DNA of 23,840 bases, from IMG/VR virus record IMGVR_UViG_3300035698_007793, positions 1-23,840 of that record; one strand, 5' to 3'. The position numbers were made by a program, and so were the translations under genes. Positions within the stretch are counted from its first letter, which is position 1. Every line of letters starts with the position of its first letter. The stretch comes from a virus. Below, one piece after another: positions 4,730 to 16,598 of this stretch. The notes beneath the pieces are model-generated. The model made no database searches. It worked only from the letters and a program-made list of their open reading frames with translations, and had not been told where the DNA came from.

Positions 4730-4927
4730 TTAACTATTTATAGCCATTGAATAAATACAGGGCTTATTCTCGGGCATTATAGCGTTTCCATCATAATCAC
4801 AAAGGCGTAGAGGAATCCGTATTTTATCACCAGTATTATTGATTTCTGAACAAGTCGGGCTGTTGGGGTTTTCATGGTTTAAGAAAGGACATTCTTGGTC
4901 ACATACATTAAATCCAAATTCGTTCAT
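4730..4927 (-). CDS. Cys-rich small hypothetical protein
   Basis: 65 residues with six cysteines: CDQECPF near residue 9, CSEI near 26, LCDYDG near 43 and KPCIY near 57. The spacing suggests one metal site or disulfides. Translation starts at the ATG at 4927 behind AAAAGGAG. Preceded by motif copy B (4957-4988). Function unknown; one of several small Cys-rich products in this arm. Confidence 0.65.
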   Translation of the reverse strand: MNEFGFNVCDQECPFLNHENPNSPTCSEINNTGDKIRIPLRLCDYDGNAIMPENKPCIYSMAINS

Positions 4928-4956
4928 AACGACTCCTTTTTATGTTTTGATTCTAA

Positions 4957-4988
4957 AAATTCACTAAATAATATCCTTTGATTTTTGC
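4957..4988 (-). promoter_or_regulatory. Repeated intergenic motif, copy B
   Basis: Minus strand: begins GCAAAAATCAAAGGAT and ends GTGAATTT, 32 bases. It lies between the stop of the pentapeptide gene (4997) and the start of the 65-residue Cys-rich gene (4927), leaving a leader of about 29 bases that carries the ribosome binding site. Confidence 0.5.
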
Positions 4989-4996
4989 TCCTTTTA

Positions 4997-5494
4997 TTAT
5001 TTAACTATTAATTTTGTTGCATCCTTGCGATAAATATCAATAAACTCTTGTGCATATTTTCGCAAAGGCTTGATAGCCTTAAGTATTTCTTTGTCCTGGT
5101 GTTCCTGATTATAAAAATGATAAAGCATTTGTAGCGATATTCTTCGGTCAATCTTTGCCATTATTCCGCCACAATGGAAAGGTATGCCACTCGACATATC
5201 AAGGTCAGCACCGCGCAGGTTAACACCGCATAGGCCAGCATTGCGCAGGTCAGCATAGCGCAGGTTAGCATCGCATAGGTCAGCATTGCGCAGGTCAGCA
5301 TAGCGCAGGTCAGCATCGTGCAGGTTAGCATAGCGCAGGTCAGCACCGCTCAGGTCAGCATAGCGCAGGTCAGCATTGCGCAGGTCAGCATCGTGCAGGT
5401 TAGCATCGCGCAGGTCAGCATTGCTCAGGTAAGCATAGCGCAGGTCAGCGAGGCTTCCAAAACCACTATTTATCCAAACTTTCAAATCTTTCAT
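4997..5494 (-). CDS. Pentapeptide-repeat protein
   Basis: 165 residues from the ATG at 5494 (GAGGAGATTAAA upstream); an in-frame ATG at 5524 has no ribosome binding site and falls in motif copy C. Residues 16-100 are 17 consecutive A(D/N)LxX pentapeptides ([15 protein letters not shown]...), which fold as a right-handed quadrilateral beta helix. The first and last repeats are degenerate ([15 protein letters not shown]). A helical C-terminal domain of about 65 residues follows. Known members such as Qnr and MfpA mimic DNA and bind gyrase; whether this one does is untested. The DNA itself is a 15-base tandem repeat (5195-5449). Confidence 0.9.
5195..5449 (-). repeat. 15-bp tandem repeat array within the pentapeptide gene
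   Basis: Seventeen units of 15 bases, on the plus strand recurring as CAGGTCAGCATAGCG with few variants (TAGCG, TTGCG, TCGTG endings; GTTAGC for GTCAGC). The units are much more alike at DNA level than the protein fold needs, which points to recent copy-number change by slippage or unequal exchange. It encodes the beta-helix of the pentapeptide protein and gives spurious repetitive open frames on both strands. Confidence 0.85.
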
Positions 5495-5523
5495 TTTAAT
5501 CTCCTCTTTTGGTTTATTTTTCA

Positions 5524-5555
5524 AAATTCAATAAAAAATATCCTTTGATTCTGGC
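5524..5555 (-). promoter_or_regulatory. Repeated intergenic motif, copy C
   Basis: Minus strand: begins GCCAGAATCAAAGGAT and ends TTGAATTT, 32 bases, same spacing as copies B and D. It precedes the pentapeptide gene start at 5494 by 29 bases. Copies A and C also share CAGTAGC just outside the motif. Confidence 0.5.
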
Positions 5556-5590
5556 TACTGTTCCGAAGGAACTAATATCCACTATCTCGA

Positions 5591-5609
5591 GTGAACGAAG
5601 TGAACTGCG
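5591..5609 (+). repeat. Scattered short repeat, copy 2
   Basis: GTGAACGAAGTGAACTGCG, the most diverged copy (AACTGCG for AAGTGCG), in the origin-like spacer 18 bases left of the DnaA boxes. Confidence 0.5.
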
Positions 5610-5626
5610 AAATTTTACAGATTTAG

Positions 5627-5649
5627 CCTGTGGATAACCTGTGTATAAC
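5627..5649 (-). other. Two tandem DnaA boxes
   Basis: The plus strand reads TGTGGATAA at 5629-5637 and TGTGTATAA at 5640-5648. Their complements are TTATCCACA and TTATACACA, both perfect fits to the bacterial DnaA-box consensus TTATNCACA. They are in the same orientation and start 11 bases apart, one helical turn. They may mark a phage origin that uses host DnaA. Confidence 0.5.
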
Positions 5650-5725
5650 TGCATAGCTATCGCCCTGGGGCCGAAGGCTCTAGCGAGCGAGCGGAGCGAG
5701 CAAAAAATTTTTTTTAGAAATAGGT

Positions 5726-5750
5726 AAAAAAAGACCCTCAATTAAGAGGG
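5726..5750 (-). terminator. Rho-independent terminator, leftward
   Basis: On the minus strand, a CCCTC stem arm, six-base loop and GAGGG arm are followed directly by seven Ts (plus-strand A tract 5726-5732). It sits 10 bases past the stop of the zinc-ribbon gene ending at 5761, and would end transcription coming from the 6821 side before the origin-like spacer. Confidence 0.75.
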
Positions 5751-5760
5751 CCGAGAGGGA

Positions 5761-6381
5761 TTAGTAAATTATACCCAAATTTGGTGCATTGTCATAGCAA
5801 TGGGGACATAAATGGTGATCGGGGTCTAATTCCCATGTGCTGAAGGTACTCCCGCAACCCTTACAATCCATTATAATGGGGTTGTCTGCACCTCTGGCGC
5901 AGTCATGGCAATATATTTTACTCTCAAAGAGGTAGCCAACTTTGCCAAAGCTGCCACATTCCGAGCATTTTATATTCTCTTTGTTACTGGTTATATATTT
6001 GGGTTTGACTATTTGTTGCGGTGCAATGTAGGAACAATCAGCACACATACCGCCAGTGAGATTCTCTTTCTTCTGAAGTGTCCCACATTCGGTACAGTAT
6101 GAAAGATTTTGGATATAACATACCCAGCAGTAGCATTTTCCATCACACATATAAATCTCGTGCGTGTCGTGGTCGCATATTTCGCAATGAAATTTTTTCT
6201 CTGGTTGTGGGTCTGCTGAATCCGCAAAGTATATTCGTAAACAATGCAGATTAAAAGATTTGCAGGTTTTCTCAATAGCTGATCGAGCTTGTGCGAAAGT
6301 GAGCCGTTGAGCTACTTTATATGTCCAAACGTGATTTTTGCCAGATTCGATTGTATATGTATATGTGGGTTGTGTAGACAT
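5761..6381 (-). CDS. Multi-zinc-ribbon protein
   Basis: 206 residues. Eight CxxC pairs lie at about residues 66/69, 85/88, 96/99, 113/116, 139/142, 158/161, 173/176 and 192/195, enough for four zinc ribbons in a row; an extra Cys is at 83. The first 60 residues form a separate Cys-poor domain. Tandem ribbons usually bind nucleic acid or RNA polymerase, so a regulator or host-takeover factor is a reasonable guess, not more. ATG at 6381 with GGAGGAAAACTAA upstream; the preceding gene stops at 6382 with no gap. A terminator follows. Confidence 0.75.
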   Translation of the reverse strand: MSTQPTYTYTIESGKNHVWTYKVAQRLTFAQARSAIEKTCKSFNLHCLRIYFADSADPQPEKKFHCEICDHDTHEIYMCDGKCYCWVCYIQNLSYCTECGTLQKKENLTGGMCADCSYIAPQQIVKPKYITSNKENIKCSECGSFGKVGYLFESKIYCHDCARGADNPIIMDCKGCGSTFSTWELDPDHHLCPHCYDNAPNLGIIY

Positions 6382-6528
6382 TTAGTTTTCCTCCATGTAT
6401 GCGGGAAGTTTAATTTTAATAGCATAAGGGCAAGTGTCGCAAGATTTAAAACCCAAAGCGCAATCATTAATCACATAAAGTGGTAATTTGTATTCTGTGC
6501 AATAGTTAATGTCTTTATCATTCGGCAT
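6382..6528 (-). CDS. Small Cys-rich hypothetical protein
   Basis: 48 residues from the ATG at 6528, with CAGGAGATAG upstream. Cysteines at about residues 10, 23, 30 and 33 (ending in SCDTCPYAI) could form a single metal site. Stop codon is directly followed by the ATG of the multi-zinc-ribbon gene, so the two are probably co-translated. Function unknown. Confidence 0.55.
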   Translation of the reverse strand: MPNDKDINYCTEYKLPLYVINDCALGFKSCDTCPYAIKIKLPAYMEEN

Positions 6529-6551
6529 GGTCTCTATCTCCTGAAGTGGGT

Positions 6552-6821
6552 TTATAGATTCTCTATAAAATTAATTAGCTCAACTTCTTCCACAATAACA
6601 ATGCTTTTATCTGCCCAAGGTGGCAAGTGTGCTGGTATAATTCTAAATTTAGTCGAAGAAAAAGTTGTAAAATCCTCCGTAGGGTATAATGAGTGCAAAG
6701 GGGCTATTGATAAATAATAAGTAACCTCTGTAGCCCATAGCTCTTTAATTTCTACGTCTTTTCTGGTGTCTATCAACTTTGTTTTTTTGGTTGCTCGGTA
6801 GATTGTTGTTGTTGCTTCCAT
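6552..6821 (-). CDS. Hypothetical protein, first gene of the leftward block
   Basis: 89 residues, ATG at 6821 with AAGGAGGAAACAAC upstream. Mixed alpha/beta composition, with a hydrophobic strand near the end (KSIVIVEEVELINFI). No family recognised. It is the first gene left of the divergent control region, so it is likely to be among the earliest expressed; its presumed promoter carries an inverted repeat (6855-6876). Confidence 0.65.
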   Translation of the reverse strand: MEATTTIYRATKKTKLIDTRKDVEIKELWATEVTYYLSIAPLHSLYPTEDFTTFSSTKFRIIPAHLPPWADKSIVIVEEVELINFIENL

Positions 6822-6854
6822 GTTGTTTCCTCCTTAAAAAGTGTTATATTGTTT

Positions 6855-6876
6855 GTACTACATACAATTATAGTAC
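6855..6876 (-). promoter_or_regulatory. Leftward -10 box inside an inverted repeat (possible operator)
   Basis: GTACTA at 6855-6860 and TAGTAC at 6871-6876 are perfect inverted arms with a 10-base spacer. On the minus strand a consensus TATAAT (6872-6867) lies across one arm, 46 bases from the start of the gene at 6821. A second nested inverted repeat, TTGTA/TACAA, is at 6853-6867. No good -35 box is present at 16-18 bases (AGGTTA at 17), so the promoter may need an activator or be repressed by a protein bound to the repeat. Confidence 0.4.
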
Positions 6877-7039
6877 TTTTATATGTAAGTAACCTGCTTA
6901 TTAGGTAAATAAAGTGTAAAGTATTTGTAAGCATGAAATTTTCTAATTTAATTAATCCGTCTAAACTTTTGCCGTTGACACTATTGCTTATAAGCGCTTT
7001 TATCTTTTGACCTTTTAAGACGCTTGCGTCTATGCGTAC

Positions 7040-7062
7040 TGGCTGAACGAACAGTGAAGTGC
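7040..7062 (+). repeat. Scattered short repeat, copy 3
   Basis: TGGCTGAACGAACAGTGAAG followed by TGC, in the divergent control region; closely similar to copy 1, with which it shares the TGGC prefix. Confidence 0.6.
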
Positions 7063-7133
7063 CTTGCTCAATAAGATAAAGGCTCTATTATTAGTGGTTC
7101 CAGTGACGTAGGAACAAATGCTATCTTGGGGAA

Positions 7134-7152
7134 TGAACGTAGTGAAGTGCGC
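7134..7152 (+). repeat. Scattered short repeat, copy 4
   Basis: TGAACGTAGTGAAGTGCGC, 72 bases right of copy 3 in the control region and 38 bases left of the rightward promoter. Confidence 0.6.
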
Positions 7153-7189
7153 CTCAGCTGGCCAGAGCCAGAAACGCCTAAATAATTAC

Positions 7190-7218
7190 TTGACACCTGT
7201 AAAGAAATTATCTATATA
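7190..7218 (+). promoter_or_regulatory. Rightward sigma70-type promoter
   Basis: Consensus TTGACA at 7190-7195, a 17-base spacer and TATATA at 7213-7218, giving a transcript start near 7225, about 25 bases before the first rightward gene and its AAAGGGGG ribosome binding site. It is the best sigma70/sigmaA match I see in the window and probably drives the packaging and structural operon with host polymerase. Confidence 0.75.
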
Positions 7219-7249
7219 AGAGTAAAACATAAACCTAAAGGGGGACTAC

Positions 7250-7471
7250 ATGGCAAAAGGCACTCCAAAGAAGGCGAAATCGCCAGAAGAAGTACTTCAT
7301 AAGTTAACAGAGAAAGTGATTATCTTAGAGGGGAAGTTATCTATTTATGTGGAAGTGATCCAAGAGTTATGTGCAATGGGTGGATTGCAGAAAGCATTAA
7401 CAAAACGTGGGCTAGAAGTATTGCCACATGACTTCAAAGGTAAGAAGTATGACAGCGGGAAGACCAACTAA
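7250..7471 (+). CDS. Small hypothetical protein upstream of TerS
   Basis: 73 residues, ATG behind AAAGGGGGACTAC. Basic N-terminus (AKGTPKKAKS), then a heptad-like helical segment (VLHKLTEKVIILEGKLSIYV) that could form a coiled coil. Its end overlaps the start of the TerS gene by 23 bases. First gene of the rightward operon. Function unknown; a packaging or regulatory accessory role would be a guess from position only. Confidence 0.6.
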   Translation: MAKGTPKKAKSPEEVLHKLTEKVIILEGKLSIYVEVIQELCAMGGLQKALTKRGLEVLPHDFKGKKYDSGKTN

Positions 7472-8102
7472 GATGACACCAGCTTGTATTAAGCTGATTG
7501 AACAAGCATGGATGCTCGGATGTACTGACGAGGAAGCCTGTCTTAGTGCTGATATTTCACGCCAAACACTCAATACTTACCAACAAGCGAATCCTTCATT
7601 TATTGACAGAAAAGCACTGCTGAAGACTACTCAGGTATTAAAGGCGCGCCAAGTCATAGCATCTAAGCTAGATAGTAAAACACCTTGGGAAGCACTGACA
7701 ACCGCTAAGCATATCCTTGAGAAGCACGATGGTAAAGCACCACAGAAGATAGACATAGCTGTGAAGGGCATTATTATCCACAGGAAGGTCTATGAATTAC
7801 CAGGAAGCGCTAAGGCAATAGATGTTGTCACACCTGTCACACTGTCACAGTTAGAGCAAGACACTGAAGCGATGGCATTGCATGAGTTGGATAGTAGTAG
7901 TAGTAGCCTTGATGATAATGTGCGCCAAGACAAGGCACCTGTTCAAGTAGAGACTATAACAACAGCAGGTAGTAGCTTAATACCCTCGGCAGGTAGTAGC
8001 TTAATACCCTCGGCAGGTAGTAGCTCAATACCCTTGGCACCTGCGAGTATCAACAAAGGGGAAGCAGTGGGTGGCACAGATAGTAGCGAAACAAAGCAAT
8101 AA
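7449..8102 (+). CDS. Terminase small subunit (TerS)
   Basis: 217 residues from the ATG at 7449 (AAAGG eight bases upstream); an in-frame ATG at 7428 lacks a site. The first 90 residues follow the small terminase pattern: AGRPTKMTP, a helix IKLIEQAWMLGCTDEEACL, the recognition turn SADISRQTLNTYQQANP and KALLKTTQVLKARQVI. TerS recognises the packaging site and loads TerL. The tail beyond residue 140 is low in complexity: a run of Ser, then three AGSSLIPS-type repeats encoded by 24-base DNA repeats, then a polar end. The identification rests on the N-terminal domain and the nearby TerL. Confidence 0.75.
   Translation: MTAGRPTKMTPACIKLIEQAWMLGCTDEEACLSADISRQTLNTYQQANPSFIDRKALLKTTQVLKARQVIASKLDSKTPWEALTTAKHILEKHDGKAPQKIDIAVKGIIIHRKVYELPGSAKAIDVVTPVTLSQLEQDTEAMALHELDSSSSSLDDNVRQDKAPVQVETITTAGSSLIPSAGSSLIPSAGSSSIPLAPASINKGEAVGGTDSSETKQ
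7965..8036 (+). repeat. Three 24-bp direct repeats in the TerS tail
   Basis: Units at 7965-7988, 7989-8012 and 8013-8036; the first two are identical (begin GCAGGTAGTAGCTTAATACC), the third has two changes. They encode AGSSLIPS, AGSSLIPS and AGSSSIPL. Near-identity suggests recent expansion of a disordered tail. Confidence 0.85.
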
Positions 8103-15687: not shown

Positions 15688-15936
15688 ATGGCTTTCACGC
15701 CCGGTACATTTCTACCTGCATCGTCTATGATTAATAGCGATTCAGTCCGCCTGTGGTCTTACAAGTCTGCAGACGCAGTAAACACAGTCATCGCAGACGA
15801 TTATTTCCTGGCAAAATATGACCAGTTGAATGTCGGTGACATGATAATCGCCAAAACCTCAACCACGACTATACTGCTTTATGTGGTTGCTTCAACGTCC
15901 ATTACTGTGACAACGGCTTATTGCGCTGTAGCTTAA
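15688..15936 (+). CDS. Short head decoration-type protein (paralogue 1)
   Basis: 82 residues, ATG behind GAAGGAGGGCC. Its N-terminal half (FLP-S-M-NS, R---YK, DDYFL--Y--LNVGD-I) matches the start of the next gene almost position for position, so the two are tandem duplicates; this copy has only the first domain and a short hydrophobic beta tail. Such domains occur in capsid cement or decoration proteins next to capsid genes; that role is inferred from location. Confidence 0.7.
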   Translation: MAFTPGTFLPASSMINSDSVRLWSYKSADAVNTVIADDYFLAKYDQLNVGDMIIAKTSTTTILLYVVASTSITVTTAYCAVA

Positions 15937-15956: not shown

Positions 15957-16598
15957 ATGGCTTTTGATCTTGACTATTTTTTACCCTTATCAGCAATGGC
16001 CAATAGTAACGTGCCCCGGGTTTTCCTCTATAAGGATGACACCGACTCGCTTGCTACTATTGTGACCGATGACTATTTCCTCAATCAGTATCTTACGCTG
16101 AATGTAGGCGATATTATCCGCGTATGGGCTGCTGGTGCAGTCAATTCTGTTGATCTTATCGTTACAGCAACGGCTGTAGGCGGAGTAACTGTTGTGGTTG
16201 GTGCTGGCGGGACTGCAGACCTTATCGCAACTAACGCTCTTGTGGCAAGCCAAAGCGGTGGCGTGTTTTTCCTCAACGCTGCTACCGAGTTTGTCACTAC
16301 GCTGCCGGCCCCTGCTCCCGGGCTGAGGTTTACATTTATTTGTAAAACGGCCCCGGTTGGCGCGAGTTACACTATTGTAACCGAAGATAGTGACAATATT
16401 ATCATCGGGCACATTAACGAAGTCACTGTAGACGATACTGTTGACGGTGATATCGCTACTGCGGGCGACACTATTACTTTTACAGATGGCGCGGCCGCTG
16501 TGGGTGACAGGGTTGACCTTATCAGTGACGGTACAAGCTGGTATGTTGTCGGCCAGTGTGCGATAGCTACTGGTATTGCTCTTTCAGCAGCAAGTTAA
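15957..16598 (+). CDS. Longer head decoration/fibre-type protein (paralogue 2)
   Basis: 213 residues, ATG behind GAAAGGAG. Residues 1-60 repeat the domain of the preceding gene. Residues 85-213 form a second beta-rich, Gly/Thr/Val-rich domain (FVTTLPAPAPGLRFTFICKT, SDGTSWYVVGQCA) like the receptor-facing or beta-sandwich regions of head fibres. Probably binds the capsid through the first domain and displays the second. A strong terminator-like hairpin follows. Confidence 0.7.
   Translation: MAFDLDYFLPLSAMANSNVPRVFLYKDDTDSLATIVTDDYFLNQYLTLNVGDIIRVWAAGAVNSVDLIVTATAVGGVTVVVGAGGTADLIATNALVASQSGGVFFLNAATEFVTTLPAPAPGLRFTFICKTAPVGASYTIVTEDSDNIIIGHINEVTVDDTVDGDIATAGDTITFTDGAAAVGDRVDLISDGTSWYVVGQCAIATGIALSAAS

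What the first reader, a model, noticed from the sequence alone, without database searches (positions are those of the whole stretch)
5556..5732. Tandem perfect DnaA boxes beside an A6T8 tract: candidate phage origin
Two sites fitting TTATNCACA exactly, same orientation, 11 bases apart, lie in a noncoding spacer with GC-rich repeats and an A6T8 tract within 70 bases. Two exact adjacent boxes by chance are unlikely. Most podoviruses of T7 type do not use DnaA, so an origin that recruits the host initiator would be notable. It could also be a DnaA-controlled regulatory site or a host-DnaA sink.
Basis: partly seen in the sequence, partly recalled or inferred. Interest (0 to 1): 0.5.

Follow-up and report, generated by a model that had tools for sequence, protein, structure and literature searches.

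The report
Host-type DnaA box pair in phage
A phage genome carries, in a short non-coding gap, the same twin docking site for the bacterial replication starter protein DnaA that bacteria carry at their own replication origins; similar twin sites in many other virus sequences tend to sit in gaps and near the place where strand composition flips, so this is a credible but unproven phage replication start.

Summary
TTATCCACA (5629-5637) and TTATACACA (5640-5648) lie on the minus strand, 11 bp start to start, in a 266-bp non-coding spacer (5495-5760). A tandem pair this close is expected about 2e-4 times in such a sequence.

The window is a 23.8-kb virus fragment with no close relative found. None of 80 terminase relatives (20 also searched as whole records) and none of 5 related named phages has an exact 11-bp pair, so conservation within the lineage is unsupported.

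The motif itself is informative. In two samples of longer viral contigs it is intergenic in 21/25 and 14/17, and in 7 of 35 non-redundant contigs it is within 350 bp of the detrended GC-skew minimum (1.4 expected). The window's pair is about 50 bp from its own skew minimum, but gene orientation can explain that minimum.

Best reading: an origin, or origin-adjacent site, recruiting host DnaA (about 0.5). Regulation, DNA-entry signalling and titration remain open.

The parts
5629..5637 (-). DnaA box TTATCCACA (exact TTATNCACA)
   Evidence: sequence
5640..5648 (-). DnaA box TTATACACA (exact TTATNCACA), start-to-start 11 bp from the first
   Evidence: sequence
5628..5650 (+). extended pair CTGTGGATAACCTGTGTATAACT; carries the majority base at the four columns that the search pattern left free (C before, C spacer, C and T after)
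   Evidence: column frequencies from 127 viral contexts: C 68%, C 66%, C 71%, T 81%
5495..5760 (.). non-coding spacer that holds the pair
   Evidence: start of the pentapeptide gene taken at the RBS-preceded ATG 5494
5481..5551 (.). AT-rich stretch of low duplex stability (top 0.3% of 40- and 60-bp windows), about 80-150 bp 3' of the boxes as they read; candidate unwinding element, partly over the start of the pentapeptide gene
   Evidence: less stable windows exist at 6833-6960
5704..5717 (.). A6T8 tract, other side of the pair
5733..5752 (-). intrinsic terminator (GGCCCTCTTAATTGAGGGTC then T7) just downstream of the 5761-6381 gene
   Evidence: 2 terminator-like sites found in 4900-7500 against 2.3 in shuffles, so called on position
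5592..5609 (+). copy of a dispersed non-coding repeat TGAACGNAGTGAAGTGCG (others at 7134; looser copies at about 4707 and 7044)
4997..5494 (-). pentapeptide-repeat protein gene, whose upstream region is the spacer
   Evidence: PF00805 E 1.5e-26
5588..5588 (.). cumulative GC-skew minimum of the window

Best explanation
The spacer holds a host-type pair of DnaA boxes, of the kind that bacteria carry beside dnaA at oriC, and acts as (or within) a replication origin of this phage: host DnaA binds the two boxes side by side on one face of the helix, helps open the neighbouring AT-rich DNA (5481-5551 is the likeliest spot), and a helicase, the host's or one coded in the missing part of the genome, is loaded there. 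Shown: the boxes, their spacing and extended motif, the non-coding position, the nearby unstable DNA, and the tendency of such pairs in other viral contigs to be intergenic and near the skew minimum. Inferred: DnaA binding, strand opening, helicase loading and that replication starts here.
For: Chance of such a pair about 2e-4. The four columns left free in the pattern are conserved in 127 viral contexts and the window has the majority base at all four. In bacteria the 22-mer TGTGGATAACYTGTGKATAACT sits with dnaA: 53 of 113 stretches hold a DnaA homologue, 50 within 1 kb; 0 of the 120 viral loci do, and a DnaA domain over the cut-off is coded in 1 of 43 and 0 of 17 longer viral records, so the viral hits are not stray oriC fragments. 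First sample, all 25 contigs of 24-58 kb among the 120: intergenic 21/25 (4.6 expected); mean circular distance to the detrended skew minimum 0.118 L against 0.203 L for random intergenic points (8 of 20000 draws as low) and 0.256 L for 40 isolated boxes of the same contigs. Second sample (other first box, 17 contigs): intergenic 14/17 (2.9 expected), mean 0.165 L against 0.242 L (55 of 5000). Together, 35 non-redundant contigs: within 350 bp of the minimum 7 against 1.37 expected, P 2e-4; near the maximum 2 against 1.12. Window pair about 50 bp from its skew minimum, rank 0.003-0.004.
Against: No conservation in the lineage: 0 of 80 terminase-relative loci, 0 of 20 whole relative records and 0 of 5 named phages has an exact 11-bp pair; one relative has a 12-bp pair (L052) and one a one-mismatch 11-bp pair (L278:1931), both inside ORFs. 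The window's skew minimum is on a plateau and its codon-3 skew goes the opposite way, so gene orientation explains it. With raw instead of detrended skew the class signal is weak (168 of 5000, 65 of 5000), and in the second sample the rank test is not significant (356 of 5000). Most pairs (28 of 35) are not within 350 bp of the minimum and 3 of 17 in the second sample lie near the maximum. Cut-offs were chosen after seeing the data. Only two boxes here, where bacterial pairs have a mean of 5.1 exact boxes within 300 bp and viral ones 3.6. No trio-like repeat next to the boxes. The exact 23-mer of the window was not in the bacterial collection.
Confidence: 0.5

Rival explanations
1. A DnaA-controlled regulatory site: host DnaA bound 135-155 bp upstream of the pentapeptide-repeat gene tunes transcription of the leftward genes to the host's replication state.
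For: The pair is in the upstream region of a minus-strand transcription unit and follows the terminator of the previous one. DnaA as a transcription regulator is established in bacteria (recalled).
Against: No promoter-like site was found in 5525-5733. It does not predict the skew-minimum tendency of pairs in other viral contigs.
Confidence: 0.2
2. A mark for DNA entry, packaging or concatemer handling rather than initiation, as for the T5 injection stop signal, which has been described as carrying repeats and DnaA boxes.
For: PMC13250531 (passage read) states that the T5 injection stop signal is characterised by repeats, palindromes and DnaA boxes. T5-like phages are among the GenBank hits (T5 kinship recalled). 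Pairs are somewhat enriched near contig ends: 22 of 120 within 5% of an end against 12 expected; in G002 they lie inside 221-bp terminal repeats.
Against: The window has podovirus-type head and tail genes, not T5 ones, and the pair lies 5.6 kb inside the record; the median pair is not near a contig end (0.235 of length).
Confidence: 0.09
3. An iteron-type phage origin in which a phage-coded initiator binds the dispersed 18-bp repeats and DnaA is only a helper, as in P1 oriR or RK2-type plasmids.
For: Four intergenic copies of a TGAACG..AGTGAAGTGCG-like repeat in 4.7-7.15 kb, two of them within 3 mismatches of the consensus (0.06 expected). Nearest relatives code own initiators (L276:6880-7581 O-like/DnaD-like next to a DnaB-like helicase).
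Against: The repeats are not tandem and are spread over 2.4 kb; no initiator gene is in the fragment.
Confidence: 0.1
4. A DnaA sink that titrates host DnaA to stop new rounds of host replication.
For: Six exact boxes in 23.8 kb against 0.96 expected.
Against: Six sites, four of them single, are few against the hundreds of DnaA molecules in a cell (recalled); the spacing and extended motif are those of cooperative oriC sites.
Confidence: 0.05
5. Chance or a decayed relic with no function.
For: No conservation in relatives.
Against: Pair probability about 2e-4 plus a match at four further free columns; choosing the pair after looking at 24 kb of sequence weakens but does not remove this.
Confidence: 0.06

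Closest known systems
Bacterial oriC / dnaA-upstream DnaA-box pairs
   Same: same 22-bp extended pair, same spacing and orientation; next to dnaA in 50 of 113 bacterial stretches
   Different: two boxes only, no dnaA gene, weak unwinding evidence, no trio-like repeat
P1 oriR-type replicons (tandem DnaA boxes plus iterons; recalled)
   Same: tandem DnaA boxes in a phage genome, AT-rich DNA and repeats nearby
   Different: no Rep gene in the fragment; repeats dispersed, not tandem
T5 injection stop signal (PMC13250531, passage)
   Same: DnaA boxes with repeats in a non-coding phage region
   Different: different phage type; no evidence for two-step DNA entry
Ori-Finder-type predicted phage origins, e.g. 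Pseudomonas phage vB_PseuGesM_254 (PMC11512268, passages)
   Same: AT-rich region with DnaA boxes called as putative phage origin
   Different: that is a single-genome prediction in a phage with DTRs, without a cross-phage test
DNA-polymerase-less podoviruses, e.g. MPP-C cyanopodoviruses (PMC9860041, passages)
   Same: host replisome recruitment is proposed there; a DNA polymerase A is missing from 17 of 20 relatives of the window's phage
   Different: that paper's text held no mention of DnaA; whether the window's phage lacks a polymerase is unknown

Membership tests
DnaA-dependent (oriC-like) replication origin | two or more DnaA boxes in one non-coding region | tested here: met
DnaA-dependent (oriC-like) replication origin | box pair in the bacterial oriC configuration | tested here: met
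   full match to TGTGGATAACYTGTGKATAACT, which lies within 1 kb of dnaA in 50 of 113 bacterial stretches; the exact 23-mer was absent
DnaA-dependent (oriC-like) replication origin | AT-rich unwinding element next to the boxes | tested here: inconclusive
   5481-5551 in the top 0.3% least stable windows, but 80-150 bp away and not the least stable
DnaA-dependent (oriC-like) replication origin | DnaA-trio-like repeat beside the boxes | tested here: not met
   no run found in either flank; a crude pattern that was also rare in the bacterial set; not present in all oriCs (recalled)
DnaA-dependent (oriC-like) replication origin | position at the strand-composition switch | tested here: inconclusive
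   minimum at 5588, confounded by gene orientation and by the record being a fragment
DnaA-dependent (oriC-like) replication origin | binds DnaA and supports autonomous replication | not testable with these tools
   -
DnaA-dependent (oriC-like) replication origin | conservation in close relatives | tested here: inconclusive
   no relative with an alignable spacer; distant relatives lack the pair
Iteron plasmid-type phage origin (P1 oriR-like) | tandem iterons | tested here: not met
   repeats dispersed over 2.4 kb
Iteron plasmid-type phage origin (P1 oriR-like) | Rep initiator gene | tested here: inconclusive
   none among the ten proteins scanned or the ten left-arm ones, but the record is a fragment
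T5 injection stop signal | T5-like phage with two-step DNA transfer | tested here: not met
   podovirus-type connector, capsid and tail tube families; no T5-like gene among the proteins scanned

The most novel reading that the evidence does not exclude
A large and phylogenetically mixed set of bacterial viruses, most without an obvious DNA polymerase A and all but one of those searched without DnaA, has independently taken up the bacteria's own oriC box pair as the entry point of replication, so that host DnaA, and thus the host cell cycle, licenses viral replication; the window is a podovirus-type example.
Probability: 0.3. Interest if true: 0.75.

Novelty: new member of a known kind. Interest (0 to 1): 0.5.

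Why it matters
If right, host DnaA would be the initiator, or one of them, for many environmental viruses known only as contigs, and a 20-base pattern would locate their origins. That gives a testable route to how phages without a polymerase or initiator of their own start replication, and a reason why host cell-cycle state could decide the course of infection. DnaA boxes in phage and plasmid origins are known in single cases; what is added here is a cross-contig test with controls.

Tried and rejected
Conservation: terminase relatives (80 loci; 20 whole records) and five named phages gave no exact 11-bp pair and no aligning left arm (only the pentapeptide repeats matched). The zinc-ribbon-like neighbour found no relative in viral contigs. 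DNA-level search of GenBank phages with the whole window found nothing.

Structure: the spacer does not fold better than shuffles as DNA (z -0.34) and only slightly as RNA (z -1.52); no Rfam family, no tRNA. So an RNA-based origin was not pursued.

The idea that phages with the pair lack a DNA polymerase more often was not supported: DNA_pol_A in 5 of 30 pair-bearing records against 3 of 20 relatives without an exact 11-bp pair; DnaB_C in 10 of 30 against 4 of 20. Contig-end bias of pairs was looked for and is real but small. Flanking genes of the ten contigs with the pair nearest the minimum were mixed (20 proteins): a short O-like initiator-domain protein in one, a DNA primase in one, terminase in one, HNH endonuclease in one, mostly unknown.

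Literature: ten searches were allowed and eight were answered, none listing a paper on widespread DnaA-box pairs in phages; most listings were judged from title and abstract start only. Passages only were read of PMC13250531, PMC9860041, PMC5835720, PMC11512268, PMC3931495 and PMC11853086. Subscription papers and preprints are not held, so this is weak evidence of novelty.

Full report
Observation. The two boxes exist as described: TTATCCACA 5629-5637 and TTATACACA 5640-5648, both minus strand, starts 11 bp apart. They lie in a spacer whose left neighbour is a pentapeptide-repeat gene (PF00805; start taken at the RBS-preceded ATG 5494) and whose right neighbour is a zinc-ribbon-like gene (5761-6381) with its terminator at 5733-5752. 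The A6T8 tract and GC-rich direct repeats are present. A tandem pair with a pitch of 9-20 bp is expected 2.3e-4 times in such a sequence.

The window. It is a whole virus record of 23,840 bases, a fragment, with podovirus-type portal, capsid and tail-tube proteins and a terminase of the phrog_2/phrog_2472 kind. No replication gene was found among the proteins scanned. No close relative exists in the collections searched: best terminase identity 63% in viral contigs and 44% in GenBank phages.

Conservation. Of 80 terminase-relative loci none has an exact 11-bp pair; of 20 whole relative records none has one, one has a 12-bp pair, which lies in an ORF. Five named phages from the two protein searches have none. 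One relative has a one-mismatch pair at 11 bp inside an ORF.

Skew. The cumulative minimum is at 5588, about 50 bp from the pair. But the curve is flat from 4800 to 6400, genes read leftward on the left and rightward on the right, and at codon position 3 the skew changes in the opposite sense, so gene orientation suffices to explain the minimum. On its own this is weak support.

What the motif is. In 127 contexts the columns that the pattern left free are conserved: C 68% before, C/T 97% in the spacer base, C 71% and T 81% after. The window has the majority base in all four. So the pair is a dnaA/oriC signature in bacteria of many phyla. None of the 120 viral loci holds a DnaA homologue; a DnaA domain over cut-off is in 1 of 43 longer viral records and in 0 of 17 of the second sample.

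Where the pair sits in viruses. First sample: all 25 contigs of 24-58 kb among the 120 (seven larger ones and all shorter ones were not taken). Intergenic in 21 of 25, 4.6 expected from ORF coverage. Mean circular distance to the detrended skew minimum 0.118 of the length; random intergenic points 0.203 (8 of 20000 draws as low); 40 isolated boxes of the same contigs 0.256. The rank of the skew value at the pair is low in 1 of 5000 draws, after removal of four related contigs 3 of 5000; with raw skew 168 and 65 of 5000. Second sample: a pattern with the other first box, all 17 contigs of 25-59 kb among the rows shown (the rows beyond those shown were not used). Intergenic 14 of 17 (2.9 expected), mean distance 0.165 against 0.242 (55 of 5000); rank test 356 of 5000; three pairs lie near the maximum instead. 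Related contigs found in this sample were then removed (three), leaving 35 in both samples: within 350 bp of the minimum 7 against 1.37 expected for intergenic points (P 2e-4), within 100 bp 4 against 0.46, near the maximum 2 against 1.12. These cut-offs were set after seeing the data, and 28 of 35 pairs are not within 350 bp.

Mechanism. The most economical reading is that host DnaA binds the pair, as it does at oriC, and that this marks or forms a replication origin. DNA of low stability lies at 5481-5551, on the 3' side of the boxes; flanks of viral pairs are only slightly AT-enriched. Whether the phage uses DnaA as sole initiator or as helper of its own initiator is open: the nearest complete relative examined codes an O-like/DnaD-like initiator beside a DnaB-like helicase and has no box pair, and the window itself has a dispersed 18-bp intergenic repeat.

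Rivals. A regulatory site upstream of the pentapeptide gene, a DNA-entry signal such as the T5 injection stop signal, which PMC13250531 (passage) describes as carrying DnaA boxes, an iteron-type origin, a DnaA sink, and chance are listed with weights. None is excluded.

Novelty. DnaA boxes in phage and plasmid origins are known in single cases (P1 oriR recalled; a software-predicted origin in PMC11512268, passages). Eight answered literature searches listed no paper on widespread DnaA-box pairs in viral contigs; the library leaves out most subscription papers. I therefore rate the window's site a new member of a known kind and the class-level observation as the more interesting part.

Noticed in passing
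window 4707, 5592, 7044, 7134 (+ strand): Four intergenic copies of an about 18-bp repeat (TGAACG..AGTGAAGTGCG), two within 3 mismatches of one consensus (0.06 expected), two with small insertions; absent from the 80 terminase-relative loci. Possible iterons or regulator sites.
   Followed up: partly
window 5560-5572 and 5670-5678: Two small perfect hairpins with a GAA loop (GTTCCGAAGGAAC, GCCGAAGGC) on either side of the box pair.
   Followed up: no
window 4997-5494: Pentapeptide-repeat protein next to the boxes; some proteins of this kind mimic DNA and act on gyrase (recalled), which could matter at an origin.
   Followed up: no
window 15688-15936 and 15957-16598: Two neighbouring ORFs after the major capsid gene have similar first 60 residues and hit the same relatives: a likely tandem duplication.
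   Followed up: no
L212:54-250 and L213 end (record G002, 36.3 kb): Arrays of DnaA-box pairs lie inside the 221-bp direct terminal repeats of a contig that codes a DNA polymerase A and a DnaB-like helicase, next to terminase.
   Followed up: partly
L093, L130, L176, L425, L435: Large arrays of exact boxes in viral contigs (10-12 within 300 bp or 10-11 within 500 bp in L093, L130, L176, L435; three pairs in L425).
   Followed up: no
L518 (G065), L541 (G074), L550 (G078): Three related contigs keep the pair within 54, 19 and 139 bp of their skew minimum: a good set for a conservation test of the spacer.
   Followed up: no
H61-H120: In GenBank phages the pair-like matches are mostly in unannotated gaps, among them T5-like, Streptomyces and Autographiviridae phages and two Microviridae-type records.
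   Followed up: partly
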